DNA of 64,000 bases, taken from contig OZ038533.1 of NCBI GenBank assembly GCA_964036665.1, forward strand, positions 13,921,075 through 13,985,074. The letters run 5' to 3'. Shown here in pieces: positions 2,951 through 43,911 of the stretch. The DNA comes from Gordius sp. MW1. Lineage: Eukaryota; Nematomorpha; Gordioida; Gordea; Gordiidae. Position numbers and translations under genes: made by a program. Every line of letters starts with the position of its first letter. Positions within the stretch are counted from its first letter, which is position 1. Below the pieces are notes generated by a model that saw nothing but the letters and a program-made list of their open reading frames with translations, was not told the origin of the DNA and did no database searches.

Positions 2951-4348
2951 CATAGACTAATAGACTGCTCATTCGCTTTAAAAAAGTGATGCCAATTTTG
3001 ACCGCCATTTGTAAGCTCTACAACGAGAGAGTCTATTCTAACGTTATAATGGGATTCTATATATACTCTCTATTTTTTACCCTCTTTCTCACCCGGGGAG
3101 GGGGGGGGGGGGTGTTTTGCCCCCCCCTAATTTTTTACCCTCTTTCTGATGCGGGGGAGAGGGGGGGGGGGGCAAGGAGGGGGGGGGGGCAGGGGGTGTT
3201 TTGCCCCCCCCCCCCCCAATTTTTTACCCTCTTTCTGATGCGGGGGAGAGGGGGGGGGGGGCAGGGGGTCTTTTGCCCCCTCTTATTTTTTACCCTCTTT
3301 CTCACCCGGGGAGGGAGGGGGGGGGGGGGGGGGTGTTTTGCCCCCCCCCTAATTTTTTACCCTCTTTCTTATGCGGGGGAGGGGGGGGGGGGGTGATTCG
3401 CTCCTCTTCTTATTTTTTACCCTCTTTGTCCCGGGGGGGGGGCCGGAAAGCCCTTTTTAACCCTTTCAAAATATTTTTGTGAAATTTTGCGGATTTTCTA
3501 TTGAAATTTATATTTTTTTTTAAAAATTGACTAGCACCCCCCCCCCCCTTCTCTCCGGCATCTGAAAAAGGGTAAAAAATAAGGGGGGGGAGCAAAACAC
3601 CCCCTGCGCCCCCTCCCCCGCATCAGAAAGAGGGTAAAAAATTAGGGGGGGGCAAAACACCCCTGCCCCACCCCTCTCCCCTCATCAGAGTGTAAAAAAT
3701 AAATTGGGGGCGCAAAACACCCCCTGCCCCCCCCCTCTCCTCCGCATCAGAAAGAGGGTAAAAAGGGGGGGGGGGTAAAACACCCCCCTGCCCCCCCCCC
3801 CTCTCCCCCCATCAGAAAGAGGGTAAAAAATAAGGGGGGGGGGCAAAACACCACCTGCCCCCCTCTCCCCCGCATCAGAAAGAGGGAAAAAAATTAGGGG
3901 GAAGGGCAAAACACCTCCCTGCCCCCCCCCCCTCTCCCCCGCATCAGAAAGAGGGTGAAAAATTGGGGGGGGGCAAAACACCCCCTGCCCCTCCCTCTCC
4001 CCCGCATCAGAAATAGGGTAAAAAATTGGGGGGGGGGGGCAAACACCCCCCTGCCCCCCCCCCTCTCCTCCGCATCAGAAAGAGGGTAAAAAATTAGGGG
4101 GGGGGCAAAACACCCTCCTGCCCCCCCCCCCTCTCCCCCGCATCAGAAAGAGGGTAAAAAATTGGGGGGGGGGGGCAGAACACCCCCCTCCCCAGGTGAA
4201 AAAGAGGGTAAAAAATAGAGAGTATATATAGAATCCCATTATAATGTTAGAATAGACTCTCTCGTTGTAGAGCTTACAAATGGCGGTCAAAATTGGCATC
4301 ACTTTTACGGTACGTATGTACGTATAATGAGCAGTCTATTAGTCTATG
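2951..4348. mobile_element. Foldback transposon, hAT-type 8-bp target duplication
   Basis: A 1.4-kb element whose arms are inverted copies of each other. It starts CATAGACTAATAGACTGCTC and ends with the complement of that sequence, and the inverted repeat extends about 120 bp further in (2979-3095 against 4190-4306). GGCGGAAC occurs on both sides (2943-2950 and 4349-4356), an exact 8-bp target duplication as made by hAT transposases. The core is a G-run/C-run minisatellite (separate entry). It has no transposase, so it would need one in trans. Reading frames in this region are by-products of the minisatellite. Confidence 0.8.
3068..4215. repeat. Inverted G-run/C-run minisatellite core of the foldback
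   Basis: Units of about 55-75 bp carry TTTTTTACCCTCTTTCT, a spacer (GATGCGGGGGAGA or ACCCGGGGAGG), a G run, TGTTTTGC and a C run. About five units read forward to about 3430. After a spacer of about 100 bp, about eleven read in reverse from 3540, where AGAGGGTAAAAAATT ends each unit. The array can therefore fold on itself, and each strand has long G tracts. The same cassette occurs in the second foldback at 42540-43535. Confidence 0.85.
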
Positions 4349-4516
4349 GGCGGAACTTAAAAAGGTTCGGGAGGGCAGCTTAATTATAAAATCGGACCGG
4401 ATCGGGTTAGGGCAGAATTTTTTAAACAAATCTGACCTCTGTAATGTAGATTGAGTGGTTGACAGTAATCCTAATATATAAAAATGTGGATTCTCCATTA
4501 TATGGTATATTGGCTG

Positions 4517-5632
4517 TAGAGAACTGCACGGGTGACCCGAGACCCGACCCGGACCCGACCCGACCCGACCCGACCCGACCTCGGGTCGGGTCGGGTTCGG
4601 GTAGAAAATTTGAAAATGATTTCGGGTCGGGTCGCGGGTAGAAAATTTGAAAATGATTTCGGGTCGGGTCCGGGTAAAAAATTTGAAAATGCTTTCGGGT
4701 CGGGTCGGGTCAAATTTATAGAGTCAGGTCCAAGGTTTATACATTGTAAAAAACACGCGAGACCTATTTTTTTAATTAATGTTAATTGCTAAGCAAAGAG
4801 TGTTTTTAAATATCGAAATGCACAATTAATTTGGATCATTCATTTATTTAATTCTCTTCCTCTTTTTTTAAATTTTAAAACTCCAAACTCTGAAGTGCTA
4901 GCTAATTCTCATCACTAATTCAAACTACATAAATTACTCCTGTTTTTAATTTGACTATTAAAAGGTAAAGTATTTCAATAAAGTTATATTTTAAATTTTT
5001 TTAGTGTTAACAGTGAAGTTTTAGCTAATCCTCATCGTTAATTTAAATTACATTTAATACATAGCCAACTTAAAAGTAAGTTATAATTTTATAAATGTTT
5101 CATGTGCAATTTTTTTTTATAATAACTTATATTATTTTAAAGTTTCATATCAAATGAATTTATCTTAAATTGCACTTCAAACTTAAAACATTCACTATAA
5201 ATTTCATCTTATTTACTATATTGATTATAATCAGCTAAATATTAATGGTTTCATAATAACAATAAATGGATGTTAAATAGTTGTCTCAAGTCTATAACAT
5301 ATGAGCAGTTTACTTGATATTAGGAAACTAAATATAGATAAATAATGAGTTTTTTTTCACCATCCCCTTTAAAGTGTACAAATCATCATGGCTTTTATTA
5401 GTCGATTTAATTTTACACACAGCAATTTTCGCGCTCGAAAGTAATTTTTTTATAATTTTTCGGGTCGGGTCGGGTTCGGGTTGAAGTTTTTAAAATGCTT
5501 TCGGGTCGGGTCGGGTTCGGGTAGAAAATTTGAAAATGATTTCGGGTCGGGTCGGGTCCGGGTAGAAAATTTGAAAATGATTTCGGGTCGGGTCGGGTTC
5601 GGGTTGAAAAAAAGTGACTTTGCAGTTCTCTA
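4517..5632. mobile_element. hAT-like MITE with GGGTCGGGTC subterminal repeats
   Basis: A 1116-bp element beginning TAGAGAACTGCA and ending TGCAGTTCTCTA, flanked by an exact 8-bp duplication ATTGGCTG (4509-4516 and 5633-5640). Both ends carry many direct and inverted copies of CGGGTCGGGT alternating with AAAATTTGAAAATGATTT. The middle (4790-5440) is AT-rich and non-coding. The short frames over the ends are repeat by-products. Confidence 0.85.
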
Positions 5633-5640
5633 ATTGGCTG

Positions 5641-6890
5641 TTACAATGTCTCAATTCAGTATTAAACTCGTTTTCCTTGAATGGAATTTATAAGTGCGCC
5701 AAATGCATTTGCATAAGTTTAGACTGACTTTCACCGTTTGCTATAAAGGTTATGCTTTTTCACATAAAATTTTTTATAAATAAATTCTAAATTTTTAAAT
5801 AACATGTTAATTTTTACACTCAAACATTGTGACGAATTGACAACGATTTCGATACATAAATAATATTTAAAACAGAAAAATGATTTAAAAAACAAGCATT
5901 TTTCGAAACTTTAAAAAGACCTAAATTTGTACCTGAATATTATAAAAGGCCAAGGCCAAGTAAAGTAGAAGCAATTTGAGGAACTATAGTTATCTAGATA
6001 TGATATCATGAGACTAAATATTGATTTTAAAATTTTAACACTAATTTTGTACACACAGGAACTTTTGGATTAGAGCAGGGGACAGCTGGATTTTCCCGCC
6101 TCTCCGTGACTATGCCCATATTTTTAAGCATATTTCCATATTAAAGATTAAAACATGAGAAAAGTTTTTTTACGCTTTGTAATTGTTTTAAATGTTTCCA
6201 AATAATTTCTTAACAAGCCCGGTAGACCTAATGTATATGTCTTATATTTATTAAATAAATTATATAAAGTGACCGTTATAATATCGTTTATTCTCTTAGA
6301 TGAGATGAAGGGTGTTGTTAGTTAAATTCTTCTTTAAATTAATTTTGCTATAAACTAATTATTATTTTACCAGCCTCTAAATCGAATTGCTTCCACCTAA
6401 CTTGGCTATGTTCCAAAACAATTTATTTTCATTTCAGCTACTATACATTATTATTAATTGCAAGCCCAAAAAGGTACACGAGTAATAAATTAAGAATTCT
6501 GCGCTTATGGTTGATTGGCTGAAATGTAACGGCCAAATGTTATGTAAACACGTTAATTGAACATTCCTAAACCTCCACGTGTTGCTAAGTACATGGGCGA
6601 AGTCATGAGGAGGCAGTGGCTGCCCTCCCCCCAAATTAAATACCTATAATATTATTTACTAAAATTATATTTAATAGCATTTATTGGAAATTGTAATAGT
6701 TTATTTAGGAAATAATGCGTTAGGAACGCAGATTTACAATTTGGGAAAAGGGGTTTGGATTGTTTTAAACATTTTAATTTGAAATGCAAAATCAAAGATA
6801 ATAAATATAATAGTATATATAATAAATGACAAGTCAAATTTAGATAGTTTGGCCTGTGTTCTGAGGATAGTGTGATAAGGAAATGTAATA
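5641..6890. other. AT-rich spacer, no gene seen
   Basis: No coding exon or structured repeat could be supported. A truncated TGGGCGTAGCC-type left end (ATGGGCGAAGTCATGAGG, then a C run) lies at 6594-6640. Confidence 0.5.
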
Positions 6891-7221
6891 CAGTCCAAAC
6901 CGTTTAATTGCAAAGCCTTAGGCCTGAAAAAATTCGCGATTAACCGATATTTCGCGATTAAACGATGGATATAAAAGTATATGTACATTATATTAAATAT
7001 TCATTTATTACGCTTCGCAATAAAACGATATTTTATATAATTTTATCTGGTTGATTTAAGGACTCGAAAATGTTTGTAAATATCCGATATTGTACTATTA
7101 AGCGATTTGCCAATAAACGATGTTTTTGTTAATATTATCGTTAAAAAAAACCAAATGGCGGTAACTTCGCGATTAAAAAATTTCCGCGATAATCCGATTT
7201 GTGATTAAGAAGTTTTGACTG
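6891..7221. mobile_element. TA-flanked MITE, pogo/Tc1-mariner type
   Basis: A 331-bp element that starts CAGTCCAAAC and ends GTTTTGACTG, with TA on each side (6889-6890 and 7222-7223). CAGTC-type ends plus a TA target are typical of pogo/Tigger-like elements. Inside are several copies of a CGCGATTAA(A/C)CGAT motif in both orientations. No transposase; a trans-mobilised derivative. Confidence 0.7.
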
Positions 7222-7223
7222 TA

Positions 7224-7980
7224 GGAGAAAATGAAATTCTAAAAGTATTCGTTTGCTTGGTAGTATCAGCCATTTATACTAAAAATAAAAGTCTCATTTG
7301 CTAGTCGTGCACTTGTTGAAGGAATCATGATTACAAAACCATATTGATTTCGTAAAAAGCTAACATTCTCGGAATTAACGTGAATTTCTATTTCTTATTT
7401 TTATTATCTCGAGATCTCGACATCATTTAATGGCTACGACAGTGCCGGGGCATAATGTAAATGGGTGTTAAAGAAATATTAAATTTAAAACACATGTTTT
7501 AGCAGATATTCATACAAAAATGGTTTTTAATGGGCCAACCAAACAGCAGCCCCCAAACAATCCATTTCCTGTACCCGCGCCTTAGTTATGTTCGTAACTA
7601 TTAGATAAATTCTATTGAAAGATTTATAATATTCTTCATGGAGCTATTACTATTATAAATGGAAAGTTTGAGGAGGGATAAAATGATCTTTTGAATTATC
7701 AAGTATTTATAAAATTGTAAAATATAAGGGGTGGTAGAGTAATGTCCTTTTTGGCTAGTCTCCTACTTCGAACCAAAACTCTGCAAAAATAAATATTTTG
7801 TAGAATTACTTTTAATAGAATCTGATTTACAGGCTAAAAATTTCTTTCGGCGCTAAAAGTAAACCTAATGCGTTTATTAATTGCTATGCAATTTATGGGA
7901 TCACTTTCCATTTTGTTTGTCCGCCTATTCGGCGTCCGCTATTCGGCGTGCGCACCGAATGTCACGCACCGAATGTCTTG
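7224..7980. other. Spacer without a recognisable gene
   Basis: AT-rich. From about 7885 it enters the composite-repeat family: TTGCTATGCAATTTATGGG, then a 7920-7980 stretch with TTCGGCG and CACCGAATGTC repeats that recurs at 27055-27155. Confidence 0.45.
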
Positions 7981-9600
7981 TTTTGTTTACTTTTAATTTT
8001 TGTTAATTTAACCAGTTTTTGGGTTCGAATCCCGGGTTTTTTTTGACTATTATGATTGTTCCTGTTACTACCAATGTTATTATGACTTTTTGGCCGTCCG
8101 TTGGGTGCTGACCGATGGAAAAAAATGACCATTGGCCAAAATGTGAATCCAAGTTTATTTTTTCGTTTTTTTCGACTTTTATGATTGTTCCTGTTACTAC
8201 CATTGCTATTATGACTTTTTGGCCGTCCGTTGGGTGCTGACCAATGAAAAAAATGACCATTGGCCAAAATGTGAATCCAAGTTTATTTTTTTCGTTTTTT
8301 TTTTTGATTATTATGATTGTTCCTGTTACTACCATTGCTATTATGACTTTTTGGCCGTCAGTTGATTGCTGACCAATGGAAAAAAATGACCATTGGCCAA
8401 AATGTGAATCGGAATTATTTTTTTCGTTTTTTTTGATTATTATGATTGTTCCTGTTACTACCAATGCTATTATGACATTTTGGCCGTCCGTTGGGTGCTG
8501 ACCGATGGAAAAAAATGACCATTGGCCAAAATGTGAATCGGAATTATTTTTTTCGTTTTTTTTTGATTATTATGATTGTTCCTGTTACTACCAATGCTAT
8601 TATGACTTTTTGGCCGTCCGTTGGGTGCTGACCGATGGAAAAAAATGACCATTGGCCAAAATGTGAATCGGAATTATTTTTTTCGTTTTTTTTGATTATT
8701 ATGATTGTTCCTGTTACTACCATTGTTTTTATGACTTTTTGGCCGTCCGTTGATTGCTGACCAATGGAAAAAAATGACCATTGGCCAAAATGTGAATCGG
8801 AATTATTTTTTTCGTTTTTTTTGATTATTATGATTGTTCCTGTTACTACCAATGCTATTATGACATTTTGGCCGTCCGTTGGGTGCTGACCGATGGAAAA
8901 AAATGACCATTGGCCAAAATGTGATTCGAAAATTTTTTTTTCGTTTTTTTTGACTCTTATGAATTTATATCCACTTTTACCGTGTCCTGGCTGCTGACAA
9001 ATGCAAAAAAAATGACCATTGGCCAAAGTGTGAATCGAAATATTTTTTTTCATTATTGTTTTGACTCTTATGTATTTATATCGACTTTTAACGTGCACTG
9101 GCTGCTGACCAATGGAAAAAAATGACCATTGGCCAAAATGTGAATCGAAATTATATGTTTCGTTTTTTTTGATTATTATGATTGTTCCTGTTACTACCAA
9201 TGCTATTATGACTTTTTGGCCGTCCGTTGGGTGCTGACCAATGGAAAAAAATGACCTTTGGCCAAAATGTGATTCGAAAATTTTTTTTTCGTTTTTTTTG
9301 ACTCTTATGAATTTATATCCACTTTTACCGTGTCCTGGCTGCTGACCAATGCAAAAAAATGACCATTGGCCAAAGTGTGAATCGAAATTTTTTTTTCATT
9401 ATTGTTTTGACTCTTTTGTATTTATATCGACTTTTAACGTGTACTGGCTGCTGACCGATGGAAAAATGACCATTGGCCAAAATGTGAATCGAAATTATTT
9501 TTTTCGTTTTTTTTGACTCTTATGAATTTATATCCACTTTTACCGTGCCCTGGCTGCTGACCAATGAAAAAAATGACCATTGGCCAAAATGTGGTTGAAA
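7981..9600 (-). repeat. ATTGGCCA satellite array 1 (about 12 units)
   Basis: A tandem array of about 127-130-bp units, read best on the minus strand. Each unit holds TTGGCCAATGGTCA, a T run, a second CATTGGTCAG, GCCAGCGGACGGCCAAAAAG, and a tail ending GTCAAAAAAAACGAAAA. Two variants alternate: one with GTAACAGGAACAATCATAAT and one with GGTAAAAGTGGATATAAATTC. The right edge in minus orientation ends at a tRNA-like box (GGGTTCGAATCCCGG near 8022). The period is near 129 bp, a multiple of three, so long frames open by chance. Probably non-coding. Confidence 0.85.
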
Positions 9601-9639
9601 AAGTTTTGATATCCTTACAATACCTGTGTCATTTTTAGG

Positions 9640-12588: not shown

Positions 12589-15500
12589 TTAATTTTGAAT
12601 CGTGATAAAATGATCTGGGGTCAGAATAGTGTTCAAAACAGTTTTACATAACTCATAATGTTTCCATAAAGTCGATTTACTGCCGACCATAATCAACTTA
12701 TGTCTAGCTCGGCTAAATGCTACGTTGAGCCTTCTCCGATCTTTGAGTATAGAGCTGGTCCCCCCTTCGCTTGCATCAAAATTTTGTGATGATACTACAA
12801 ATGACAGTATTATAACCGACTTTTCATGGCCCTGGAATTGATCTATGGTCTTAACGTCAATTTCTGAACCAACTAGAGCTCCCTTTAGCGCCTCAACTTG
12901 TGCGCTGTACAAAGCTATGATACCCAATTCGGATGTGGGAATGTGACATCGCTTTATTAAAGTTTCCACTAAATCTACGATCACTCGAATTTCTATAAGA
13001 TTTACAGTAGTCAAGTTGGATTGATCATCTCGTCGGTGATACTTCTTTAAACAGCCATCCACGTTCAAGAATGCTATCGCCTTACCCAAGTCAGGGTCTA
13101 AGGCGCGATAAATCCAATCGGATTTTTGATCATTGATATGGCTGAGTATGGAAGGATTAATGGTATTAGTAGCAACTTCTAAGTTTCCGGATAACAGTTT
13201 CCCGTTCAAAATGAGGGGATGATTGCAAAGTTGCATTAGAGTCCGATTCATCCTGTATTGCACGTTAAGTTCGTAAAGTAGGGTGGACCGTGATCCATTT
13301 CGCGTGGCGCTTTCTTCTAGCGAAGCGAACAGACTCTGTTCGCCATCCAATTTTTTTGCAAGGGGGTGCTTTATTATGGGTGGTAATTGGTCCGAATCTC
13401 CTACCAATACGAATCGCTCGCACCTTAGAAGCGCGCTCAAAATTAAGGGCTGCGATATTTGGGAAGCTTCATCCACTACGCATACGTCGTATCGCATTTT
13501 GTGTATCAAGGGCTCCCTAAGAAACAAGCGCATGTATATAAAAGTAAAGATTAATTCTAAAATTTACAAATGTCTTTATATATTAGTTACAAATTTGGAT
13601 AGTGGGGCAAGTATTACGTTTGAAAAGCTCCTTTAATTCCAATAAATATATAGTGAATAAAGGGATTATTATTATTAATTCTTTATACGAATAAAAACCA
13701 GCAAAAATCATTTAGTAATAATTAAAAAAATTCAAAGTTCGTCTAAAAGATACTTTTAATAATCATTGCAAATTGAACCTGGAGATAGTGAAAGCTGTTG
13801 CGGCATAAATGCTGTGACTCGCGAGGTATTGTTCAAGTTTTCCCATGTCAAATCGCCTTTTGTCCTCAACCCCCGTCACACAATTTTCTTTAATGGTCGC
13901 GGATGTCAAGCAATATTTTCTCAACTCCCGAGGAATTTTATCGTCGTTACACTTATTTTCATCCTTACAAAAACCGGCTCCAACCCTAAGAAAATCGTGG
14001 ATACCGTCGGCAGAAAGTTTGCAGAGAACGTTATCTATGGCTGAATTGGTATGCGCCGTCAATAGTGTAGATAGACCGAGTGCGCGAAAAATTGATATTA
14101 GCTTTAGGATCGTTTTTGTTTTACCCGACCCTGGCATTCCCTTTATCAAGATGTACCTTGAAGTATACAAAACTAGTTTTTAATTCTTCAGTTAGTCCAA
14201 ATAAAATATTTATTAATATATCCAAGTCTGAAGAAACCGGGATTTTGACCTTTAAAATTAAACAGAACTCTCTAATACTTGGCTACCTTAATAAAATCAA
14301 TTCATGGACAGTTTAAATTTTGTTTGAAGTAAATTGGCGTTGGCCCTTAAGTCCCAGCCTGCACATAACTTTTTAACGGTTGAGCCTACTTCCCCAATTC
14401 TTATTTTCTCAAACGCTGACCACCTTAATTTGTATTCCTTTCTAAATAAGATCGCATAAAGCATCCAATGTCTTCATATAGACAAAAATAAGATGAGACT
14501 AGATATAAATAATTTACTTCTGACAAGTCAAAGCACCGATGATGGCTTTAAGCTGTTCGTCGTTGAGGGTTTTAGTGTACTTTCGAACAATCCTTTCTTC
14601 GTGAGGCGTCAGAACTCGACTAGCCGGTTCAGCTAATCCCCTTACAATAACGTCCCGTAACCGTTTAAAACCAGGCCCAGGCCTCATTAAAGCAGTTAAA
14701 TTCCCGAGCCCGGCTGAAAGTGAGTAAGTGGAAAGTTGACGATCGTATTTATGTTTAGAGTTATCGTAAAGTTTGACGACAGAAAGGTGGCAGAGAAGAG
14801 GTGACGAGTTAAACTTAAGTATTTCTTGCTTATAATGAGCGTCGGATTTGATTATTGAAATGGTGAAAATGTGTGAAATTTGACCATTATCGATGGACAT
14901 CAATATGCCCATTATTTGACTCTTTGACTGTTCACATTCGATCAAGACTTTTTGACCGACCACGAAGGCTGGACAAAGTTCATCTTTGGCATCGATAGAA
15001 CGAAACCTAAAAAATTTATAATAAAACACATTTGTATACATTTACATGATATAAAATTATTAATCAATGTATTTACCACAGGACACAGTTCAAAAATATT
15101 AAATTCCTTAAAATGCAAAAATCAACAAACTCCAAAATAAAGTGTCAAAATCGCCCAAAAACAAACTTTATAGCAAGATTTTCTTCACGTTCCATCATCT
15201 CAAATTCATTTTCGAAAGGGATGGATGTACAAAGCAGACGATCCAAACGTCCGCTAGAAGCAGATGATTTACATTCACGTGATAAAGCTTGACATTCGAT
15301 ATGCAATATAGAATACCATTTTTTAAAGTAAGCTGTATCACTTTTATCTAAATGCTCAACGATATTAGTGTGAGATGGCCTAGGATTATTGCAATCCTCT
15401 ATTTCATTTCGCCCTTCTTCGGAATCATTAAAACTTTTGCTAATCAACGAGCAGGATAGCAATTGTGGGCACCTTTGGCATGTTCCCTCATTAGCAGTTA

Positions 15501-17532
15501 CTTTAGGAAGGTATGATTTATATGTGAATAATTCATCAGAATGCTCTCTACCATTATTAGCTATGCATTTTACCGGGTTAAAGTTAAGCCTCGGCATGGT
15601 ATAGTAAGCTAATTCATTACGAATTTTAATCAAGCCTATCAAGTGTCTAGGTACATCAGTTTTCACCGGTATCATGGTCAATCCCACCTCAAAGTTATCT
15701 TCCCGCTCCACCTTCAATTGCTTACGACCGTTGAACGATCGATACTTTTTAACGTTTTGTTCACGATCCAAGTATAATAGTAGACCTTTGGTCGCTCCGC
15801 TGCCTTTGTCATCTAATTTGGAGGCAGTGGCCTCATTTAGGAGCAAAGAGTAAAGCATAACTTGTGCTTGGTGTTCGATAGAGTTTGAATTACGCCCAGT
15901 TTTAAGTTCTAAAACTGCCCGTACGTCGCAAGATTCAGATTCGCTATTTGCCATGGCGGAACTTAAGTCTAAAGTTACATCCAAAAATCCCTTTAAACCA
16001 TACACCTGGGATTCGATATAATTTTCGGTTACGAGATTTTTGATTCGGTAGGCCAGAGATTTTTTTGGTGTCGATGATAGTTTTTTTTCATAGTTTTGAC
16101 ACATTTCCTTTGGATACTCGAGGGATAAAATTGGGTTTTTGTTGATTATGTACCGCATTTTCCAATCTACAAAATCTGCTATTCGAGCGTCTAATTTGCG
16201 AGTTAAAGATTCCAACGATAAATCATAAAAAATAACATCTAACAACATCGAAGCATCGATTGAGTTCGTAATTAACGATTTAATTTTAGTAAATTCTTCA
16301 TTTTTCAAATATTCAGAAGATTGAATGTAACCATTAGTCATACATGTGACACTTTGTTGTATATAGGATTGGAAAACTTTGTGAGCTAGTTTTCCATAAG
16401 CCAAATTAAAAGCCTCTCCATTCTCATAGAGTTCTATAAGAAAAACGATTTTTTATAATGTAACAACAAATAATTTATGCTAATGTACTTTTCTCTTCCA
16501 AAATACAGAATCCATCTGAATTTACTTCAATGTAAGATGGTGGATCAGGAATTGTAATAATCCTCTGGTTAAGTATACTACGACGAGGACATGATATTCC
16601 AGATACAATATTTGTACATGAAATAGGTGATAGAGGATTAATTGTAAGGGCAATATGTGCTTCATCAAGTATTAATAATAATGGAACGTGCTTGTCAATG
16701 TAGGAATTACAACAATGCCTTACTATGTTTGTATAACGGGGAGAAAGGTTAATGGTTTGATAAATAGATTCAAATGAAATATTTTCCAAATTTAAATAAT
16801 AATTAGAATTTTTAATGTCTGAATTAGGGTTGAAATTTACTATTCTAATTAGACTACCAATGTCTACTAAATGTTCTGACCAACTTCCTAGCAAAATACA
16901 CTGTAGTCTAGGTATACAATCAGAAACAACTGAATTATATATAATTAATGACAAATATATAATTTCTACATCATTTAAGGTTATTTTCTGAATGTTAATG
17001 GTTAAATATATGCAATGTTCAATATCAATTTCTAGATGGTTAATGAACTTTTGATTGTCACATGGTATTGAGTCATCTAATTTTTTAATCTGATTGTTAT
17101 ATAATATTTTAGAATCCAAAAGGTCAGAACAATACTCCTTTTTTGCTAACTTTTCCTTAACATCCAAATTTTGTTTAGAGGTTAAATTTAACTTTTTAGG
17201 TACAATAGTGTAAAATTTTTTGGAATTTCCATGTATGTTAGTTTGATCTGATTTAAGATTTGTTATTAATTTCAAAACTGTAGCAGGTGGAATCAACTTT
17301 TGTAATATTTCATTTTCTTTACTACATTTTAGATGAGGTTTACTAACTAATTAACAGTAATTAAAAACTTTTAAATATAAAATAATTAGGGTATATTAAA
17401 ATAAGTTATATATATACAAAAAATTATACCACATTGAGACCCTGACTTCGCAGAAAAATAGTTAAATATTTTTTGTTGATTTTGTTTAGTGGAATTTTTT
17501 TGTTTGTCTTTGAAAACAGCATTCTTTTTCAT
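12589..17532 (-). CDS. DNA2: DNA2 DNA replication ATP-dependent helicase/nuclease
   Basis: DNA2 trims long 5' flaps in Okazaki-fragment maturation and resects DNA ends, in the nucleus. Six exons, all GT-AG: 17532-17430, 17346-16489, 16433-15167, 15006-14518, 14156-13779 and 13516-12589. They sum to 4023 bases, 1340 codons plus TAA. Exon 1 encodes QQKIFNYF (residues 19-26), a textbook PIP box. The nuclease has GLKGFLD (Asp472) and LELKTG (Glu496, Lys498). The Fe-S cysteines are C287 (CPRR) and the CxxCx5C at 639/642/648. Helicase motifs: GMPGSGKT (Lys918), VVDEAS (Asp1047), GDSDQLPP, QYRMN, DQFQGHE and RRLNVAFSRARHK. It is longer than vertebrate DNA2 (about 1060 residues), mainly through a poorly conserved N-terminal region. 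Introns are 55-360 bp. No disabling change is seen, so it looks functional. The first-exon start is inferred from a single ATG in frame. Confidence 0.93.
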
Positions 17533-21071: not shown

Positions 21072-21079
21072 GTCTATAG

Positions 21080-22275: not shown

Positions 22276-22283
22276 GTGTCAAT

Positions 22284-26300: not shown

Positions 26301-29300
26301 TAGGTTTTCTATGAAATCACAATCTAATTAAATGAAATATATTAACCCAATAAAAAAATATATATGCATTTATAAGGTTAAAAATATATATTACATAGTT
26401 GGCTGTCTGTTAGACCATCTATAATAAATTTTTAGATTATATATAAAATTTGGCCAATGGTCATTTTTTTTCATCGGTCAGTACCAACAGATACTCTATA
26501 AATCAATGATAGCCAAAAAACACGGAAAATTTTTTTTTGATGCTCACTTTGGCCAATGGTCATTTTTTTCCATTGGTCAGCAGCCAGCGGACGGCCAAAA
26601 AGTCATATTATCAATGGTATTAACAAAAACAATCATAAGAGTCAAAAAAAAACGGAAAAAAATTTCGATTCACAATTTGGCCAATGGTCATTTTTTTCCA
26701 ATGGTCAGCAGTCAGGAAACGGTAAAAGTGAATATAAATTCATAAGAGTCAAAAAAACGAAAAAAAAATTTTCGAATCACATTTTGGCCAATGGTCATTT
26801 TTTTCTATTGGTCAGCAGCCAGGACACGGTAAAAGTGGATATAAATTCATAATAGGCAAAAAATAACGAAAAAAAAATTTTCGAATCACATCTTGGCCAA
26901 TGGTCATTTTTTTCCATTGGTCAGCAGCCAACGGACGGCCAAAAAGTCACAATAACAATGGTATTAACAGGAACAATCATAATAGTCAAAAAAAACTCCG
27001 GGATTCGAACCCACAAACTAGTTAAATTAATTAAAATTAAAAGTAAACAGCGTGAGAAGACATTCGGTGCGTGACAAGACATTCGGTGCAAGACACCGAA
27101 GAGCGTGACAATATATAGATTCGGTGCAAGACATTCGGTAGCGTGACAAGACATCGGAAAATGGAAAGTGAGCCCATAATGAAACATAGATCCTTGTAAG
27201 GGAGGGCATAGGGTAAAAATTTCGATTTATACTTTGGCCAATGGTCATTTTTTTCATTGGTCAGTAGCCAGCGGACGGCCAAAAGGTCACATTAACAATG
27301 GTATTAACAAGAACAATATATTAATTTAATTTAAAAAATAAATAAAAAAACTCGGGCCTTCGGCCCTCGTGGGAAGGGGGAGAAGGGAAGGGGGGACGAC
27401 TCATCTGCACTTCGTATAAATGTATCATATTTGCTATGCAATTTATGGGCGAGAAAGGTGGGAAGGGGCGAGAATGCCTATAGGGGGGTATTAAATGCCT
27501 AATGATTAATTAATTATTTATACAAATTTTCCATTTATAGGCAAAATGTAATATAGGCAAAATGTAATATAGGCAAGGGTTAGGGTTAGATTTAGTGTTT
27601 GCATCTAGTTGCGTGTTACATTAGTTTTTATGGCCTTTAGTGATTATGGGTCTAACAAACATTATATTATAAAACATCACAATGTTAAGAATTTGCAGAA
27701 CTGTTGGGAGAAATTTTTTGTTGAATTTGAACAATTTTTAATTAAAAAAAATCAAAAATTTGGCCAATGGTCATTTTTTCTCTATTGGTCAGTACCAACA
27801 GATACTCTATAAGTCAATGATAGCCAAAAAAACGGAAAAAAAATTTTGATGCTCACTTTGGCCAATGGTCATTTTTTTCCATTGGTCAGCAGCCAGCACA
27901 CGGAAAAAGTGGATATAAATTCATAAGAGTAAAAAAAAAACGAAAAAAATATTTTCGAATCACATTTTGGCCAATGGTCATTTTTTTTCCATTGGTCAGC
28001 AGCCAGGACACGGTAAAAGTGGATATAAATTCATAATAGTCAAAAACAACGAAAAAAAAAAGTTTTCGAATCACATTTTGGTCAATGGTCATTTTATTCC
28101 ATTGGTCAGCAGCCAGCGGACGGCCAAAATGTCATAATAGCAATGGTAGGAACAGGAACAATCATAATAGTCAAAAAAAAACGAAAAAAATAATTTCGAT
28201 TCACATTTTGGCTAATGGTCATTTTTTCCATCTGTCAGGAGCCAGCGGACGGCCAAAAAGTCATAATAGCAATGGTAGTAACGGGAACAATCATAATAGT
28301 CAAAAAAAAACGAAAAAAATAATTTCGATTCACATTTTGGCCAATGGTCATTTTTTCCATCGGTCAGGAGCCAGCGGACGGCCAAAAAGTTATAATAGCA
28401 ATGGTAGTAACAGGGACAATCAAAAGAGTCAAAAAAAACTCCGGGATTCTAACCCAAAAACTAGTTAAATTGCATAGCAATTAAAAGTACAACTTTTAAT
28501 TATGTTTATTATATAACATTGGTCAGCAGCCAGCGGACGGCCAAAAAGTCATAATAGCAATGGTAGAAACAGGAACAATCATAATAGTCAAAAAAAAACG
28601 AAAAAAATAATTTCGATTCACATTTTGGCCAATGGTCATTTTTTTCATTGGTCAGCAGCCAGCGGACGGCCAAAAATTCTTATTATCAATGTGTTGTAGT
28701 CCTACACGAATCAGAACAGTTGCTCATATCTCTTCCCCATTGCTTTACGCATTTTAACTCCGATCTATATATAGACGCGTAGATATACATCACGTGTAGA
28801 TGTAGATATCCATACGCGCGTTTTCATTGGTCAATTATTATCTTTTGTTCACAACATAACATATGATGTAGTTTTTGCTTTTTTCATATTTCAATAATAA
28901 TTAATCCCAAGTAACCGCGCGAATTAGTGAAGCGAAATTATTTATATCTAAAAATGAAAAAAGCAAAAACTACATCATATGTTATGTTGTGAACAAAAGA
29001 TAATAATTGACCAATGAAAACGCGCGTATGGATATCTACATCTACACGTGATGTATATCTACGCGTCTATATATAGATCGGAGTTAAAATGCGTAAAGCA
29101 ATGGGGAAGAGATATGAGCAACTGTTCTGATTCGTGTAGGACTACAACACCATACCCTTCACGATAACTTCCTCCGACCCGATTGTTGACTTCTAGACAC
29201 GGTCATCGGATTTGAGTTGTTGACCGTTGTTCATTGTTCGGACGTACGAATCCATTTGTATTGAACGTCTCCAGGATCGTTTTTTCTGATTCGGCCTTCC

Positions 29301-32300: not shown

Positions 32301-35300
32301 CAAAAACGAGCCCATAAATTGCATAGCAATTAATAGATCCTTGTTTACAAACGAAAGAAGCTTTCAAAATTTAAATTACGAGATAAGTTATTTTCGTTTT
32401 AGAGATTTTCGAGATAAGTTTTAAAGTAAGTTGCAGAACAAAGTTGCTTTTCATTTTTTAAAATACCACAGTTTAATACTAAGGTTATCATATTTAGGAG
32501 ATTTTCACATATAATGTTGTTTTATGGACTATTTTTTAACTGGCCTAATTTTTATATGTTTTACAATTAATATAAAATATCTAAATCCCCCCCCTTTTGG
32601 GAATTTTTTTTAAAACTTAGCGAATTATATGGAAATACTCAATGATATTAATAGGACTTTTTTTATTGTTGCGCTGATAAAAATAATCAACTACCTTATT
32701 GAAATTAATTTTAGATGAAAATCTATTAATTATAATACTATTTATGCAAACATTTTCCTTCCTATTACAGGTTTTAAAATTAAAAGAAATTTAAGAGCGT
32801 TTTTCACGCTTCCTTCCTGAGATCTAATTTTTTTGACTTACTCTTTTCTTTAGAAACTGAGTGTGCTAATTTCCATAATTGAGATTTATGATCAAATTCA
32901 ACTAAATAAATTTCTCATCATTTATTCATGGAACCTGTGATTATTAAATAAGGGGATAGCGATAGTTTTAATTTTTGATATGGCTAGAAATTAACAAAAT
33001 TAGGTAATTTTTGTTAAATAAAATTAAACTTGCAGAGTTTCCAATTACATTTGAGACAAATGGTTTTATGCAGCTACAGGTGCTACAATTCAAAGTGAAA
33101 TGGCAGATCTCTCGTTTAAATAATAAAAAACTGTGTGAGACCGATGATTTTAACATGATTATAGAACATTTTCAAAATAAAAATAAATGATTATTTTAAT
33201 ATGGACAAAAGAATTTGCATTTAAAAATCAGTAAAATAAAAGAATTTTTTTCGAGAAAGGTTCAGGCTGGGCTCATGCTTAGCAAAAATTATCGGGCCGG
33301 GTCCGCACATATAATTTTTTCTTAATTAGTCCGGGCCGGATCCAGATTTTAAAAATTTTTCTAACTTATAAACAAATGAATTAAGCCTAAAGGGCTGGCA
33401 TGGGCGTAGCCAGGGGAAGGAAGGCAGGGGGGGGGGGCGGCTGCCCCCCCCCCCCCTAATTTTATAAAAAAATATTTTCAATACAAAAACCCTTAAGAAT
33501 TAAAAAAAAATTATGTTTTGCCCCCCCCCCTTTGCTCTGCCCCACCCTAATTAGGCTCTGCCCCCCCCCCTCCGGATAGCCGAGACCTTTTTTTTTGCTC
33601 TTAGGAAAATTTTAGAGGAAAATTTTTGGATTTGGATAGCCGAGACCTTTTTTTTTGCTCTCAGGAAAATTTTAGAATTTTTTTTTAATCTGCCCCCCCC
33701 CCCTAATTTAAAACCTGGCTACGCCCATGAGGGCTGGTGCAGATCTACAGTTTAAACAACGCATGGTTGGCATATTCAGAAAAATTGAAAGGGCTCTTTG
33801 CAAATTGCATCCTTGCAAGAAAAGCCACAGGAATTGGGGCACAAAACGTAAATAATTTAACTTTTATAAGCTTTTTCTAAGTACAAACAACTGCATATAT
33901 TAATAATGCATTTTTTTTATCAAAAACCTATTATAAATATTAAATGTATATAATTTTAATTGATTTTTGGTAATATAAAATTTTTGACAGTTACTCACAC
34001 CCCCCCCCCCCCCCCCCCCAAGTACACAATCTGAATTTTTTTGTTTATAGTGTTATTTATCAAAAATCTTTGAAAATAACTCCTGCCTTAACCACTGATT
34101 CAGACATATTGTAGTCAAATTTGTTAAAAATGAATTTTTAAATCTCATGATTTTCACAAGCTGCTATATTTTTAATGTACCAAAACTAAATTGTTGAAAA
34201 TTGTACACATGTTAAACCTTATATTATAAAAATACGTCTAAAATAGTTTATTAATCTAATTAAAATATGTGCAAAAGATAAATTTACCAAAATCGTTTTA
34301 GAAATCACATTATGTATATAAAATTTTAAAATAATAATTTTAAAAACCGAATTTATGTTTACATTATATATTAGAGTCATGGTATTTAAAATAGGGTGTT
34401 ATTTAAATGCATAGTGAAAAATTCCATAATGCTCAGTTGTTTGTGCTCAGTTTTTAATTCAACTTGCTCAGATTTTTAATTAAAAATGTTCAGTTTTTTT
34501 TATGCTCAGATTTTAATTAAAAAGTGCTCAGTTTTTTTGTAAACAAATGTTCAGTAATTTTTCAAAAATTATTCAGTTTTTTTTCAAAAAATGTTAAGTT
34601 TTTTTTTCAAAAAATATTCAGTTTTTTTCAAAAAAATGTTCAGTTTTTTTTCAAAAAAATATTTCGTTTTTTTTTCAAAATATGCTGAGTTGTTATTAAA
34701 ATCACTAAATCTAACCCTAACCCTTGCCTATATTACATTTTGCACAGAAGTGTTATTGAGCTGTGGAAACGCTAGAGAGCTTTAATAATAGTAATAAATT
34801 ATTCATTTAAATCGCGTATTTATAAAAAGTAATTTTATCTGTGGAAACCTTAGAGAGCTTTTATAATCGTTGTAAGTTATTACTCTATTTGTATAATAAA
34901 AATTGTCTATATTAAGTACATAAATCAAAGTATATTAAAAACAAACAAAATGATTCCTTTAATAATCATTTATTAAAATAATATATATAAAAACCTAATA
35001 AAATGTTATAGCTGCTATATATAAGTGATATAACCAAAAATATTTTGAGGTTGGATTGAACGTCTGACTAGCAGCTTCAATAGCTCGTACCTCGCAGGTT
35101 CGATACCCGCACCTATCTCGTTTTAATTAAAAATTAAAACCACTTTGCATAAAAAAACTTGGCAAGTATAATTAATCTCTGAGCAAATAAATAAAAATCT
35201 GAACATTTAATAAAAAACTTAACATTTAATTCAAAACTTGGCAAATTGAATAAAAAACTTGGAAAATGGCAATAAAAACTTTGCACTTTGAATAAAAAAC

Positions 35301-38300
35301 TATGCAAAATAATTTGTTCTCTTTAAAATATAAATATGTTGATATATAATTCATATGTTTATTTATTATATAGAGGAGACGAATTTAGAATAAGATTTGC
35401 CCGTTACTTAAGAGAAAATATGATAGGGTCAAAAAGGTACATATCAATGCAATTTTACAGACAACACAATGTTGTCTCAGAAGTCAGAAGCCCGTGGAGT
35501 AACACAATGATTGGAAATTTTGTTAACAACTATTTTGATCAGGACGATTAGTAAATAATATATTTTTTGACATTACAATATCGTTTATAAATTTATTTAA
35601 AAAATATGAGAATTATTATTAAGATTATTAATATTATATACATTTTTGCAAAAACGTATCAAAATTTGGAATGCAAGCTATTATAGATATTAATCAAGGT
35701 TGGCATAAAATATCCTGGAATATGTTATGGCTATAATTTTTGACTTATTTTTTATGAAAGTAAAAATCTGATAAGTTTATATTATTATTCCTTAGCGATC
35801 AGTTAAAAAGTATCATACCACGTGCGCTAATTGAAAAAGGGTTATTAATAAACGAGCTTGTAAGTAGTGAAGATAAAAAGAAGTAAATTATAATACTAAC
35901 TATATTAATAATTGAAAACAGGGGAAAAGCATATAACTCAACTTCTGACAATGTATTTTATCGACCATGGCCTCAAGAAAAGTAATTCATATTGATGTCT
36001 CTGGCTTTAAATTACATCATTCTATATAGGCCTGAACATTATAGCGCTCAGGATGCAGATAAAAAAGTCCCATTGACCAAGAATCTAGGCAAACCCATTC
36101 ATTTTAAGTATGTCTTATTTTTGCAATTGCAAAATATTACAGATGTTATTAATTATAACTTAGAACCACTTACTAATTTTAGAATAGTAAACGCATTAGG
36201 CATCGTTTCTTGCACAATTTAATTATTTGATTTTCTAATCGACTTTAAAAACTGGTTGGGAGAGGTATAAAAGAGACGTTGAAATCATTAATATTAGTCA
36301 AAGAATTCTCACAATTTATAAGTCAAATAATAGCTTACCCTTTCTATTGATAAAACTACATGTTTTTATTCATAAAAATGAATTAAAATAAAATATGTTA
36401 TTTTATTACCCATCCTAATTATAAATAAAATAAAAGCATTCATTATAATTTTAGGCAAAAGTTCATTTGAACATTATCATTATTTAAAACGGATTAAATC
36501 TTCATTCAATAATGTGTCATTTTAGCAATTACATGATTAGGGCGTCTCGCAACTTAAACTTTATTAACACGTCAGTATCGCTGTTTTCATTTATTTAAAA
36601 CAGGCGCGTAGTTCTCAAGGGGGAGGAAAAATTCAAAAAAATCTTCGACACTTTTATTTATAATGTAACAAAAATAAACCTCGCGTACTATATATACGAA
36701 AACTCAAGGCGCTATATAACCAGCTTTGGAAAAGTCTCTTCTTTTCATTAATCAGAGCATTTACTATCGCTTTTATACCTTAAAAAAGGACATGGACCTT
36801 CAAAAATTTTTTCAAATTTTGGTCAAGGGGGTAGAAAAGTCCCGCTTTCTGCCCCCTTGGCTACGCGCCTGATTTAAAAGCTTATAATTCAATGCTTTTG
36901 CAAATGATGTTTTAGTTTACAGACAATTGGTAATGTACAGAGACCTTTGTAATCGTACTATATTCCAAAAGTTAGCTGTTTTTTCACACAATTTTTCAAA
37001 ATCGTTTGTTAAAACGTGTCAAACTTGATGCAAGAAATATTTTTATTCTACCTCCTTTGACTCATTTTTAAATTCATAAATTTATTTCACCCATTTTGGG
37101 TTAATTTTTTGACCATCTAATTAAACTTAAAGTTCAAGGTGAGAATAAATAAGCAGTAAAATGATTTTATTTAAGATTATTTTTACATAAAGCTTTAAAT
37201 TAATCTGATAATTAATAAAGTTAGGAGTGTTCAGCTTCAGTTCTTTTACCATCCTTATTAAAACTGGCGGACGAAATTTAAATTAGGCTAAAAATATAAT
37301 CCTACACAATGATGGCTTACATGGGCGTAGCCAAGTTTTGGATTAGGGGGGGGGGCAAAATGCTTAAAAGTTCAATTAGCGGGGGGGGCAAAACGTAAAT
37401 TTTTCTAATTTTTAAGGGTTTTTGCATTGATTTTTTTTTGCCATTTAGGGGGGGGGGGCAGAACCCCCCCTGCCCCCCTTCCCCCTCTGGCTACGCCCAT
37501 GATGGCTTAGAATAGATATATGATTTAAACACGAGGAATATTGTCAAACAATTATTGACTCATTACTTTATTTAATTTTAGAATAAAGAGATGGTATTCC
37601 GACAGTGATATATACATTTTATTTAGAAATGAGACTCACAAATGGTAAGTAAAAATATTATCCATATATTTATGCGCATATTTTATACCACTCTTTTTAA
37701 GGTAAATTTATAACATTAAATATATATTCTGCTACTTTGATATTACCTATCCATACATAAATGTTTAGGCACCAAAAACCAATTTTATTTTAATTTTTTA
37801 TCAGATTTTTTTGTTAACTATAATTACATCACGATTTAATACCTACACTTCTCCAATTTTTACAATGAATTTAAATGGAGATTGATGCAGAAAAATTATT
37901 TTAAGCTTTTAATTATAATAATAGTATGGCTTTATTACATAAATTTATAACCCCAGCATTTTTTCTGCATTGCTTTAATTTTTAGAATGGATATTATTGG
38001 CTAAAAAATGTACATTAATTTTTTACGATTAAAAGGTTAGATTATCAAAATTTCGAAAAAGTTGATAAAAAGGAAGGAATTGATGGGCAAATAAAGGACC
38101 AAGGATTTGGGTAAGAATTTACTTTTCCACCTTGCATGTTATATAACTCAACAGTAGTACAATTGGCACTCATTTGGATGCTCGGAATAAAATCAGGTAA
38201 AACAAATTACGATACAGTTAAAATTCACTTATTTTCTGATTAATTTAATTATGAATAGTTAATATCAACAAATATTTTTATTAATTTTTGACGTTTAACT

Positions 38301-41209: not shown

Positions 41210-42163
41210 CCTGTGGTGGTACAGCTGAAAAAATACAAAACTTATTTAAGAGAAAATTTTAAACCTTGGCATAATATTACGTGTATATAGATGTCAATGT
41301 TCTTATGCGTGATACATTTATTATGTAATGATTTCAGGAGCCATAAAAAATTAAAACTATACCACTTAACTCTGCTAAATTTTGGCGCATCCTTAATAAA
41401 TAATAATAATTAAAAAAACTAAACAGGCTCCTTTTGGTCCTCCTGATGCACTGAAATTATTTTTACGGAATTTCGAAAAGCCAAGTTAAAAAAAGTATTT
41501 GTTGTTAAACGTATCTGCACTTTCCTCGTCCCCTTATTCTCTTGACTTGTTTAGGGTTGCCACACTAGGAATAGATAAAATTCCCACTAGAAATTAAAAA
41601 GTGAAGTTATAAACCGTGGGTAAAGATTCAATTTTTTGGCAAACATGAGAAAAATTGTATAGAAACTAGAGTTGTACTGAAAAATAAATTTTAATTAAAT
41701 TTATTTACAAAATTTATAAAAATAAACAAATAATTAATCTAGAAGATATTACTTTTTTTCAGGCTTTTAATAATAATCTTTTGCAGTGCAATATGTTCAC
41801 AATACAAATACTTTTTTTTAAATAGTTCTTATGAAAGAATAATTACATTAGAATACGACGAAATCGAAAATAATATTTAATTTTAACCCAAAAATAATGT
41901 TTATTTCAACACGGTTCGAATATAATTTACAAATTTCATAACAAACGCAACCCTAAAATCAGTTTTCCCACTTAAAAACCCATTCTACATATAAAAAGCA
42001 GCAGGATTACTAAAATAATTCAGTTTATACTTTATTTGAAAATGTAAAATGGCATGGCATTACTCAGCAAAGTCGAACTTGAACCAAATTTTCTTAAGTC
42101 ACTCGTACAGAACTCTAATTCAGTAACTAATTACTTTAAACAAGGAATAACTCTTAATAAGTC
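41210..42163. other. Spacer between the unrecognised gene and the gypsy element
   Basis: AT-rich; no further exon or repeat was recognised. Confidence 0.35.
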
Positions 42164-42168
42164 CTTCC

Positions 42169-43911
42169 TATTACAGTTTTACTACAGCCAGGTTTCTAAG
42201 CGATACAATAATAGAAAGTGAGTAAAAACGTGTATATCCAACGTATATAATTAGAGTTGTTAAATTGCTAATTTAGCAATGCTAACTATGTGCTATGCTC
42301 GAGCACGAACAGTAGCTGGGTAATATGCTAGTTTAACACAATGAGTGCTAGCTGCTCGGTGCAATAGTTTTAACAGTAGCACCTAAAAATGCTCGAGAGG
42401 TTAGTCGAAGCAGCCAAATCTGTTAAAAAATTTAGGAGGAGCTCGAGCAGTAAATTCGAGCAGATAGTAGATTGAATTGCTACTTGTTAAAATTACAATT
42501 TTAATCCTATTATATATCATAAATAAATTAAGAACTTTGCCCCCCCCCCCTATTTTTTACCCTCTTTCTTACCAGAGGGGGGGGGGGGGAGGGGGGGGGG
42601 GGGGTCTTTTGCCCCCCCCCTTGTTTTTTTACCCTCTTTCTTACCAAAGGGGGGGGGGGGGGGGGGGTGTTTTGCCCCCCCCCCTATTTTTACCCTCTTT
42701 CTTACCAGATGGGGGGGGGATGTTTTCCCCCCCCCCCCATTTTTTACCCTCTTTCTTACCAGATGGAAGGGGGATGTTTTGCCCCCCCCCCTTATTTTTT
42801 ACCCTTTTTCTTACAAGAGGGGAGGGGGGTGTTTTGCTCCCTCCCTTATTTTTTACCCTCTTTCTTACCAGATGGGAGGGGGGGGGGGTGTTTTGCCCCC
42901 CCCCCCTTATTTTTTATCCTCATTCTCATCAGATTGGAGGGGGATGTTTTGCCCCCCCCCCCTTTATTTTTTACCCTCTTTCTCACCAGAGACGGGTTTG
43001 CCCCCCAACCTTTTTTTTACACTTTTTCTTACCAGGGGGGGGCAGCAGTGAAAAAGAGGGATAAAAAATAAGGGGGGCAAAACACCCCCCCCCCCCCCCA
43101 TCTTCCCTCTGGTGAGAAAGAGGATAATAAGGGGGGGGGGCAAAACACTTCCCTCCCCTCTAGTGAGAAAGAGGATAAAAAATAGGCCCCATCTCCTCTC
43201 TGGTGAAAAAGAGGATAGAAAATAAGGGGGGGGGGCAAAACACCCGCCCCCCCTCCCATCTGGTAAGAATAAAAAATAAGGGGGGAGGGGGGCAAAACAC
43301 CCCCCCCCCCTTCCCTCTGGTAAGATAGAGGGTAAAAAATAGGGGGGGGGGCCAAACACCGCCCCACCCCCCATCTCCCCTCTGGTGAGAAAGAGGATAA
43401 AAATAAGGGGGGGGGGCAAAACACCTCCCCCCTCCCCCCTGGTGAGAAAGAGGATAAAAAATAAGGGGGGGGGCAAAACACCCCCCCCCCCCTCTGGTAA
43501 GAAAGAGGGTAAAAAATAAGGGGGGGGGGCAAAGTTCTTAATTTATTTGATATATAATAGGATTAAAATTGTAATTTTAACAAATAGCAATTCAATCTAC
43601 TATCTGCTCGAATTTACTGCTCGAGCTCCTCCTAAATTTTTTAACAGATTTGGCTGCTTCGACTAACCTCTCGAGCATTTTTACGTGCTACTGTTAAAAC
43701 TATCGCACCGAACAGCTAGCACTCATTGTGCTAACCTACATATTACCCAGCTAGTGTTCGTGCTCGCGTTTTTAGTTGAAGCTACTTAGCAATTTAACAA
43801 CTATATATATAATACATTCCGCATATAACCAATTAACGATAATTTGATTGACAACACATCGGTAAATTACATATCCCCTGAGGCACTTCGCACTCCAATT
43901 ACCTCTCTACA
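42169..43911 (-). repeat. 3' LTR of the gypsy element (split by a foldback)
   Basis: 42169-42251 and 43814-43911 together make the LTR. They align with 54431-54482 plus 56240-56361 with a few substitutions (for example AGGCACTTCGC against AGGCATTTCGC). Confidence 0.85.
42252..43805. mobile_element. hAT-type foldback transposon with G/C-run minisatellite core
   Basis: 1554 bp, bounded by the exact 8-bp duplication TATATAAT (42244-42251 and 43806-43813). Ends are TAGAGTTGTTAAATTGCTAA and the near-perfect complement, and the inverted arms extend about 290 bp (42252-42540 against 43520-43805) with CTCGAGCA-type motifs. The core at 42540-43535 is the inverted array TTTTTTACCCTCTTTCTTACC, G run, TGTTTTGC, C run: about eight units one way, then about eight the other, meeting near 43045. 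No transposase. The long frames here are by-products of the array. Confidence 0.85.

What the first reader, a model, noticed from the sequence alone, without database searches (positions are those of the whole stretch)
2951..43805. Two different hAT-type foldbacks share one inverted G-run/C-run minisatellite
The elements at 2951-4348 and 42252-43805 have unrelated terminal arms (CATAGACTAATAG against TAGAGTTGTTAAA) but both make 8-bp target duplications. Both contain the same cassette: TTTTTTACCCTCTTTCT, a spacer, a G run, TGTTTTGC and a C run, arranged as two facing arrays around a centre. Either the cassette moves between elements, or terminal arms were swapped around a fixed core. The core could form long hairpins and G-quadruplexes on either strand. 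I know of no described family with this layout.
Basis: partly seen in the sequence, partly recalled or inferred. Interest (0 to 1): 0.75.

Follow-up and report, generated by a model that had tools for sequence, protein, structure and literature searches.

The report
One repeat core inside unrelated transposons
In one eukaryotic genome the same noncoding core of facing tandem repeats sits inside jumping genes with unrelated ends, one kind from the P-element group and others that look like hAT elements, which suggests that the inside and the ends of a transposon can be exchanged between unrelated groups.

Summary
Both window elements are complete foldback insertions with perfect 8-bp duplications, unrelated arms and a shared facing minisatellite. 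TACCCTCTTTCT occurs 3,693 + 3,733 times genome-wide, against 17 and 25 for the reversed control.

Element A is not hAT. Its arm is the end of P-superfamily transposons: other copies run from the same arm into decayed P-transposase sequence. Element B and a third family C (ends TAGTGTTGTAAAAA) have hAT-like ends and 8-bp duplications, but I found no hAT transposase for them.

A (P) and C (hAT-like) share more than the cassette. A's centre equals the start of C's 1.3-kb centre at 94% mean identity, the same as between A copies, while their arms show no similarity. Divergence cannot explain that, so ends were exchanged around a core. B shares the cassette only. Units cluster by arm family (483 of 541), so transfers were few.

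The transfer route is inferred. Galileo chimeras and coral CMITEs are precedents within one family or superfamily.

The parts
2943..2950 (.). 8-bp target duplication GGCGGAAC, left of element A
   Evidence: 8 of 8 match to 4349-4356
2951..3072 (+). left arm of A: end of a P-superfamily transposon (CATAGACTAATAGACTGCTCATT..)
   Evidence: aligns with the end of the P-transposase element in L085; the same arm runs into P-transposase sequence in L098 and L099
3073..3432 (+). left cassette array of A (spacer types CACCC and GATGC)
3433..3536 (.). centre of A: shortened copy of the start of the 1.3-kb centre of family C
   Evidence: 3433-3492 matches L011 centre positions 6-65 at 98%, 3493-3532 matches positions 95-134 at 90%
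3537..4216 (-). right, facing cassette array of A
4217..4348 (-). right arm of A, inverted copy of the same P end
   Evidence: 97.7% over 132 aligned bases to the left arm
4349..4356 (.). 8-bp target duplication GGCGGAAC, right of element A
42244..42251 (.). 8-bp target duplication TATATAAT, left of element B
   Evidence: 8 of 8 match to 43806-43813
42252..42539 (+). left arm of B: hAT-like end TAGAGTTGTTAAATTG..
   Evidence: TAGAGTTGTTAAATTGC has 365 + 349 copies, many as pairs about 200 bp apart; no transposase found
42540..43042 (+). left cassette array of B (spacer types TACCA and CACCA), beginning in a C run
43043..43529 (-). right, facing cassette array of B
43530..43805 (-). right arm of B
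   Evidence: 94.9% over 297 aligned bases to the left arm, array bases included
43806..43813 (.). 8-bp target duplication TATATAAT, right of element B

Best explanation
These are nonautonomous foldback transposons built from two modules of different history. The outer module is an ordinary transposon end: a P-superfamily end in A, hAT-like ends in B and C. Each end type also exists on short copies without the cassette. The inner module is a noncoding core of two facing minisatellite arrays, around a centre in A and C. The core entered at least two unrelated end types in a few events, most likely by template switching or gene conversion while transposon-made breaks were repaired; the joins lie in low-complexity DNA (C runs in B and C, a T-rich TATTT string in A). 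After that each end type amplified its own version: units expanded and contracted like any minisatellite, and whole elements were moved in trans by the transposase that fits their ends. Shown: the anatomy, the 8-bp duplications, P identity of the A ends, identity of the A and C cores under unrelated arms, relatives of all three end types without a core, family-specific units. Inferred: the repair-based transfer, its direction, trans-mobilisation, and hAT identity of B and C.
For: P identity of A: L085 holds a 3,437-bp element whose end aligns with the A arm (score 55; 200 shuffles mean 15.5, maximum 25), with 8-bp duplication TATATAAT-like TATATGCC on both sides (read) and THAP, P-HTH and TNP-like RNaseH frames in order. 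L098 and L099 carry the full A arm and run into decayed P-transposase sequence (78-79% DNA identity to L085 over 518 and 555 bp; 75% protein identity over 154 aa for L098; THAP frame in L099). Duplications: A, 15 end pairs at 7-8 of 8 among 32 loosely formed pairs, two of the 15 being one duplicated insertion; B, 3 of 4 pairs 8 of 8, plus L074 7 of 8 by eye; C, 6 of 8 pairs 8 of 8. Shared core: C centre in 40 long copies at 95-100%; A centre against C 94.2% mean in 22 loci, between A copies 94.5% in 231 pairs. Arms A, B, C: no score above shuffles. No A end inside three C elements. Units: 483 of 541 nearest units in the same arm family, 0 of 500 permutations as high. Core-free copies: L028, L082, L083 for A, L079, L080 for C, about 200-bp pairs for B (distances only).
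Against: No hAT transposase with B or C ends was found; 12 of 150 scored dimerisation-domain hits were checked downstream. B shares only the cassette, so its link to the A and C core is weaker. D ends are unresolved, and 7 of 20 core centres on C1 could not be assigned. L018 and two of eight C end pairs lack a matching duplication. L098 has one loose cassette match in 1.4 kb. No intermediate with one P and one hAT-like arm was seen in the loci read.
Confidence: 0.7

Rival explanations
1. Nested insertion: the core is itself a mobile element that inserted separately into P and hAT-like elements.
For: The same core occurs in several hosts.
Against: The outer edges of the core differ between families (TATTT string in A, C run in B and C). 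Host arms are inverted copies on both sides of the core, which a simple insertion does not make. I saw no duplication at core edges, but did not search all copies for one.
Confidence: 0.12
2. Common descent: A, B and C are one old family whose arms diverged while the core was kept.
For: All three have 8-bp duplications and an inverted layout. B and C ends both start TAG.GTTGT.
Against: A arms run into P transposase genes, and A and C arms show no similarity above shuffles while their noncoding centres are 94% identical.
Confidence: 0.05
3. The arrays are kept because they bind transposase: cassettes act as internal binding sites, as THAP sites in the arm repeats of Galileo do, so several families gained by acquiring them.
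For: In Galileo, THAP binding sites lie in arm tandem repeats (PMC3688188, abstract and one section read). The motif is regularly repeated and kept in both array directions. Compatible with the main explanation.
Against: Core-free copies of all three end types have spread. P and hAT transposases bind DNA with different domains, so one site serving both is unlikely (established knowledge). Not tested.
Confidence: 0.1
4. Independent simple-sequence growth or assembly error made the shared G/C-run arrays.
For: G and C runs are long, variable and error-prone, and other repeats in the window have them too.
Against: The 12-base motif outside the runs has 7,426 copies against 42 in the control; the centre start, which has no such runs, has 78 + 76 copies against 0. 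Only run lengths remain doubtful.
Confidence: 0.02

Closest known systems
Galileo (P superfamily foldback transposon of Drosophila)
   Same: Long internally repetitive inverted arms; P-superfamily transposase; chimeric copies in which one central region lies under ends of three subfamilies (PMC3573991, passages and one section read); THAP sites in arm repeats (PMC3688188, abstract and one section read).
   Different: Galileo has 7-bp duplications, here 8; its exchange is between subfamilies of one transposon, here between P ends and unrelated hAT-like ends. Sequences were not compared.
CMITEs of Acropora corals
   Same: Different ends around a conserved internal region of unknown origin (PMC2872659, abstract and two sections read).
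   Different: All CMITE ends keep a piggyBac motif and TTAA duplications; about 100 bp long; the internal region is 75 bases, not facing minisatellites.
Tetris (Drosophila virilis)
   Same: Nonautonomous foldback element with tandem repeats in its inverted arms (PMC4079207, abstract read).
   Different: Repeats of about 220 bp; the abstract relates its ends to one other element, DAIBAM, with which it shares them, not a core under unrelated ends.
P elements and their MITEs in Anopheles gambiae
   Same: 8-bp duplications; P-derived ends around an interior unrelated to P (PMC1562414, passages read).
   Different: The passages read do not describe facing minisatellites or an interior shared with another superfamily.

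Membership tests
P superfamily (element A ends) | same ends as elements coding for a P-type transposase | tested here: met
   L085 element and L098, L099; C-terminal frames of L098 and L099 alone gave no Pfam match
P superfamily (element A ends) | 8-bp target duplication | tested here: met
   15 of 32 loosely formed end pairs at 7-8 of 8, 14 after removing one duplicated locus
P superfamily (element A ends) | own transposase gene | tested here: not met
   window A holds arrays and centre only, so it is a nonautonomous derivative
hAT superfamily (elements B and C) | 8-bp duplication and TAG-type short inverted ends | tested here: met
   the hAT pattern of ends is recalled knowledge
hAT superfamily (elements B and C) | relative with the same ends that codes for a hAT transposase | tested here: inconclusive
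   12 of 150 scored PF05699 hits read about 560 bp downstream: none with the C end, two with CAACTCTA, like the first nine bases of B
hAT superfamily (element A) | hAT ends or transposase | tested here: not met
   A ends belong to P elements
Galileo | 7-bp duplication | tested here: not met
   8-bp duplications
Galileo | Galileo end sequence | not tested
   no Galileo sequence was compared
foldback elements (structural class) | long inverted arms with internal tandem repeats around a short centre | tested here: met

The most novel reading that the evidence does not exclude
The core is a passenger not tied to any transposon superfamily: a noncoding inverted minisatellite that passes between P and hAT-like transposons because its palindrome and its G/C runs promote template switching, and so is copied by whichever transposases are active.
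Probability: 0.3. Interest if true: 0.8.

Novelty: new variant of a known kind. Interest (0 to 1): 0.6.

Why it matters
Classification and phylogeny of DNA transposons assume that inside and ends travel together. Here a noncoding core of 94% identity sits under P-superfamily ends and under unrelated, hAT-like ends, so the two modules appear to recombine across superfamilies. Capture junctions, core-free relatives and amplified products lie in one genome, so the way foldback transposons acquire their long repetitive arms can be tested directly.

Tried and rejected
hAT identity of A was dropped once P transposons with the same ends were found. L081, the first long A-ended element fetched, has an A arm without cassette but no transposase frame and other repeats inside. 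L077, a 3.0-kb pair of C ends, has no frame over 75 aa, and L078 has only short frames, one of which I took from memory for a semaphorin exon. The hAT C-terminal frame inside an A array (L035) is flanked by GGGTCGGGT-type repeats and is taken as a nested insertion, not as A's transposase. Rfam found nothing in the window. The pattern TTTTTTACCCTCTTTCTNANC has no match in viral contigs, and one piece of the P transposase has none in plasmids (of little value). The host was not identified.

A possible origin of the cassette from the CATGGGCGTAGCCA MITE, whose copies also hold G and C runs and TGTTTTGCCCC, was seen by eye, not tested, and is not claimed. The first unit-clustering test sampled A units and held two duplicated loci; it was repeated on the A-D units without them, with the same outcome.
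Full report
WHAT IS THERE. Window 2951-4348 (element A) and 42252-43805 (element B) are complete insertions with perfect 8-bp duplications, GGCGGAAC and TATATAAT. Between inverted arms lie two facing arrays of one minisatellite unit: TTTTTTACCCTCTTTCT, about five spacer bases, a G run, TGTTTTGC, a C run and an A/T linker. The G run, TGTTTTG and C run can fold as a small hairpin: an idealised 27-mer gives -13.8 kcal/mol as DNA, 1 of 200 shuffles as good; a stretch of A is matched by 5 of 200 and a unit of B by 34 of 200, so the real B unit folds no better than chance. The four-G-run motif occurs 6 and 5 times on the two strands of A and 3 and 3 times in B, of 37 in the window. Whether such structures form was not tested.

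GENOME-WIDE. TACCCTCTTTCT has 3,693 + 3,733 exact copies against 17 and 25 for the reversed pattern. I read the 14 array loci behind the first 100 listed places, all in the first 2.74 Mb of C1. By arms: type A in 3 (both sides in L012 and L022, one in L013), type B in 3 (both sides in L014 and L021, one in L015), type C in 2 (both sides in L011 and L018), type D in 3 (L017, L019, L020, a shared arm of about 320 bp on one side). L016 shares the inner ~75 bp of the B arm on one side. L009 and L010 have no recurrent arm next to the array; L010 and L016 share a 141-bp flank that stops short of it. D ends were not resolved. Fourteen arrays in 2.74 Mb would extrapolate to about a thousand genome-wide, a rough figure from one chromosome end.

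ENDS OF A ARE P-SUPERFAMILY ENDS. Thirty A-arm loci were fetched of 40 scored of 628 candidates; 29 of 30 hold a cassette motif. They include the window copy (L026), a second cut of L013 (L042) and a duplicated locus (L029 and L032 have identical flanks). Fifteen end pairs match at 7 or 8 of 8 duplication positions, of 32 pairs formed by a loose search that also joins chance matches; 14 are distinct, and one of them (L028, 457 bp) has no cassette. P-type transposase domains are present (59 TNP-like_GBD matches, several per element). Of two such elements read, L084 is 3,406 bp with ends CATAGACTAAGAATAACATAGAC and duplication ATTTACAT, and L085 is 3,437 bp with ends CAGAGACTAACTAGACTGCTCATT and CATAGACTGCTCATT and duplication TATATGCC. 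The first 63 bp of L085 match A copies L012, L082 and L083 at 78-80% and 37 bp of the window element at 89%; the local score is 55 against a shuffle maximum of 25. Its frames carry THAP, the P HTH, TNP-like RNaseH_N, a GBD start below the curated cut-off, and RNaseH_C, in order. Two match the solved P transposase 6p5a weakly (E 2.6e-4 and 5.5e-5).

A WITHOUT THE CORE. L098 and L099 carry the full A arm but continue ..TCTCTATTTATTAAAAA.. into decayed P-transposase sequence. L099 has no cassette motif in 1.4 kb and L098 one loose match. DNA identity to L085 is 78-79% over 518 and 555 bp; the L098 frame is 75% identical to L085 over 154 aa; L099 has a THAP frame, while the other two frames scanned gave no Pfam match. 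Cassette copies read ..CTCTCTATTTTTTACCCTC.. instead. Genome-wide 88 + 100 places match GGGATTCTATATATACTCTCTATTTATTA with up to 2 mismatches, and the 100 listed hold both versions, five of them an exact match to the core-free form. Both arms of A copy the same P end. So A is a P end, duplicated in inverted order, around a core that joined at a T-rich string. Short core-free A copies also exist (L082, L083).

B AND C. C ends in TAGTGTTGTAAAAA, with 2,338 + 2,353 exact copies against 16 and 15 in the control. Six of 8 end pairs have 8 of 8 duplications, two have 6 of 8. L011 has ATTCATGA on both sides; L018 does not match (read). Short core-free copies L079 and L080 have duplications GTGTACAC and CTCCATTC (read). 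For B, 3 of 4 end pairs match 8 of 8, and L074 7 of 8 by eye; the B 17-mer has 365 + 349 copies against 1 and 0. Of 99 listed sites on C1, 28 pairs lie at most 260 bp apart and one pair 3,616 bp apart. hAT identity of B and C rests on ends and duplications alone. I looked about 560 bp downstream of 12 of 150 scored PF05699 hits (3,413 candidates): none has the C end; two, L091 and L092, have CAACTCTA, like the first nine bases of B.

ONE CORE UNDER A AND C. The C centre (1,316 bp, from L011) has 40 copies of 1.1 kb or more at 95-100%, among 40 scored of 826 candidates. The A centre is its start: best segments 80-98% identical over 57-135 bp. Mean A to C identity is 94.2% (22 loci) and the mean between A copies 94.5% (231 pairs), from 26 of 33 A entries whose centre scored, duplicates included. 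L011 and L056 agree at 99% over 136 bp there. The A version reads as an internal deletion of the C centre (sequences). Arms show no similarity above shuffles: A-C 14 against mean 19.7, A-B 19 against 18.8, B-C 23 against 22.6. No A end was found in three C elements at up to 2 mismatches of a 13-mer. The centre start AGCCCTTTTTAACCCTTT has 78 + 76 copies against 0; of 20 on C1, 7 lie by A ends, 6 in C elements and 7 are unassigned, the C lists being partial. Divergence would not leave noncoding centres 94% alike and arms unrelated, so a module was exchanged. B has no such centre and shares the cassette only.

HOW OFTEN. With G and C runs capped at three, 483 of 541 A-D units have their nearest unit outside their own array in the same arm family (permutation mean 282.7, SD 39.2, maximum 388, 0 of 500 as high). 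D is the exception: 11 of 27. A and C units are as close (0.252) as A units to one another (0.255); B is further off (0.305 and 0.320). Spacers agree: A and C share GATGC, while B and the few units of L009, L010 and L016 have ACCA types. On one side of the centre the C elements L011 and L056 carry A-type CACCC/GATGC units; L018, without a centre, does not. This fits few transfers followed by amplification within each family. Array sides differ in length, as expected of minisatellites.

MECHANISM. Most likely a break left by transposon excision, or a stalled palindrome, was repaired with a template switch into an array-bearing element. The ends decide the transposase; the core is carried along. 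Direction and timing are not known. A binding role for the arrays, as in Galileo, remains possible.

LITERATURE. Seven searches. Closest: Galileo copies with one central region under ends of three subfamilies (PMC3573991, passages and one section); THAP sites in Galileo arm repeats (PMC3688188, abstract and one section); CMITEs (PMC2872659, abstract and two sections); Tetris (PMC4079207, abstract); Anopheles P MITEs (PMC1562414, passages). Nothing that I read describes a core shared between superfamilies. The library holds open-licence papers only, so absence from print is not shown.

Noticed in passing
window 37320-37501, 57959-58138, 33399-33729 and others: A second MITE family, CATGGGCGTAGCCA..TGGCTACGCCCATG, with G and C runs inside; the three copies named have perfect 8-bp duplications (ATGGCTTA, TACTTAAA, AGGGCTGG). 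Some copies hold TGTTTTGCCCC, as the cassette does.
   Followed up: partly
window 48153-48956: Element with 19-nt perfect inverted ends TAGAGGTGTGCACGGATCA, ATCCGATCC-type repeats inside and flanks ATACGCGT / GTACGCGT (7 of 8).
   Followed up: partly
L035:701-1087 (-): hAT dimerisation frame (PF05699) between GGGTCGGGT-type repeats, nested in a cassette array of an A element; many near-identical hits genome-wide.
   Followed up: partly
window 8036-9593, 26633-28438, 54963-55563: Large tandem arrays of 102-129-bp units (GACCAATGGAAAAAAATGACCATTGGCCAAAATG..) at three places in both directions.
   Followed up: no
L056:2849-7041 (-): Ty3-type retrotransposon frames inserted in the centre of a C element; described only.
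   Followed up: no
window 50851-51309 (+): A 152-aa frame that looks hAT-transposase-like by eye (CHTLNLIAT..VVTRWNSTFD) but has no Pfam match.
   Followed up: partly
window 12589-17350 (-): Frames with AAA_12 and AAA_11 helicase domains in the first; taken from memory for a Dna2-like gene with introns.
   Followed up: no
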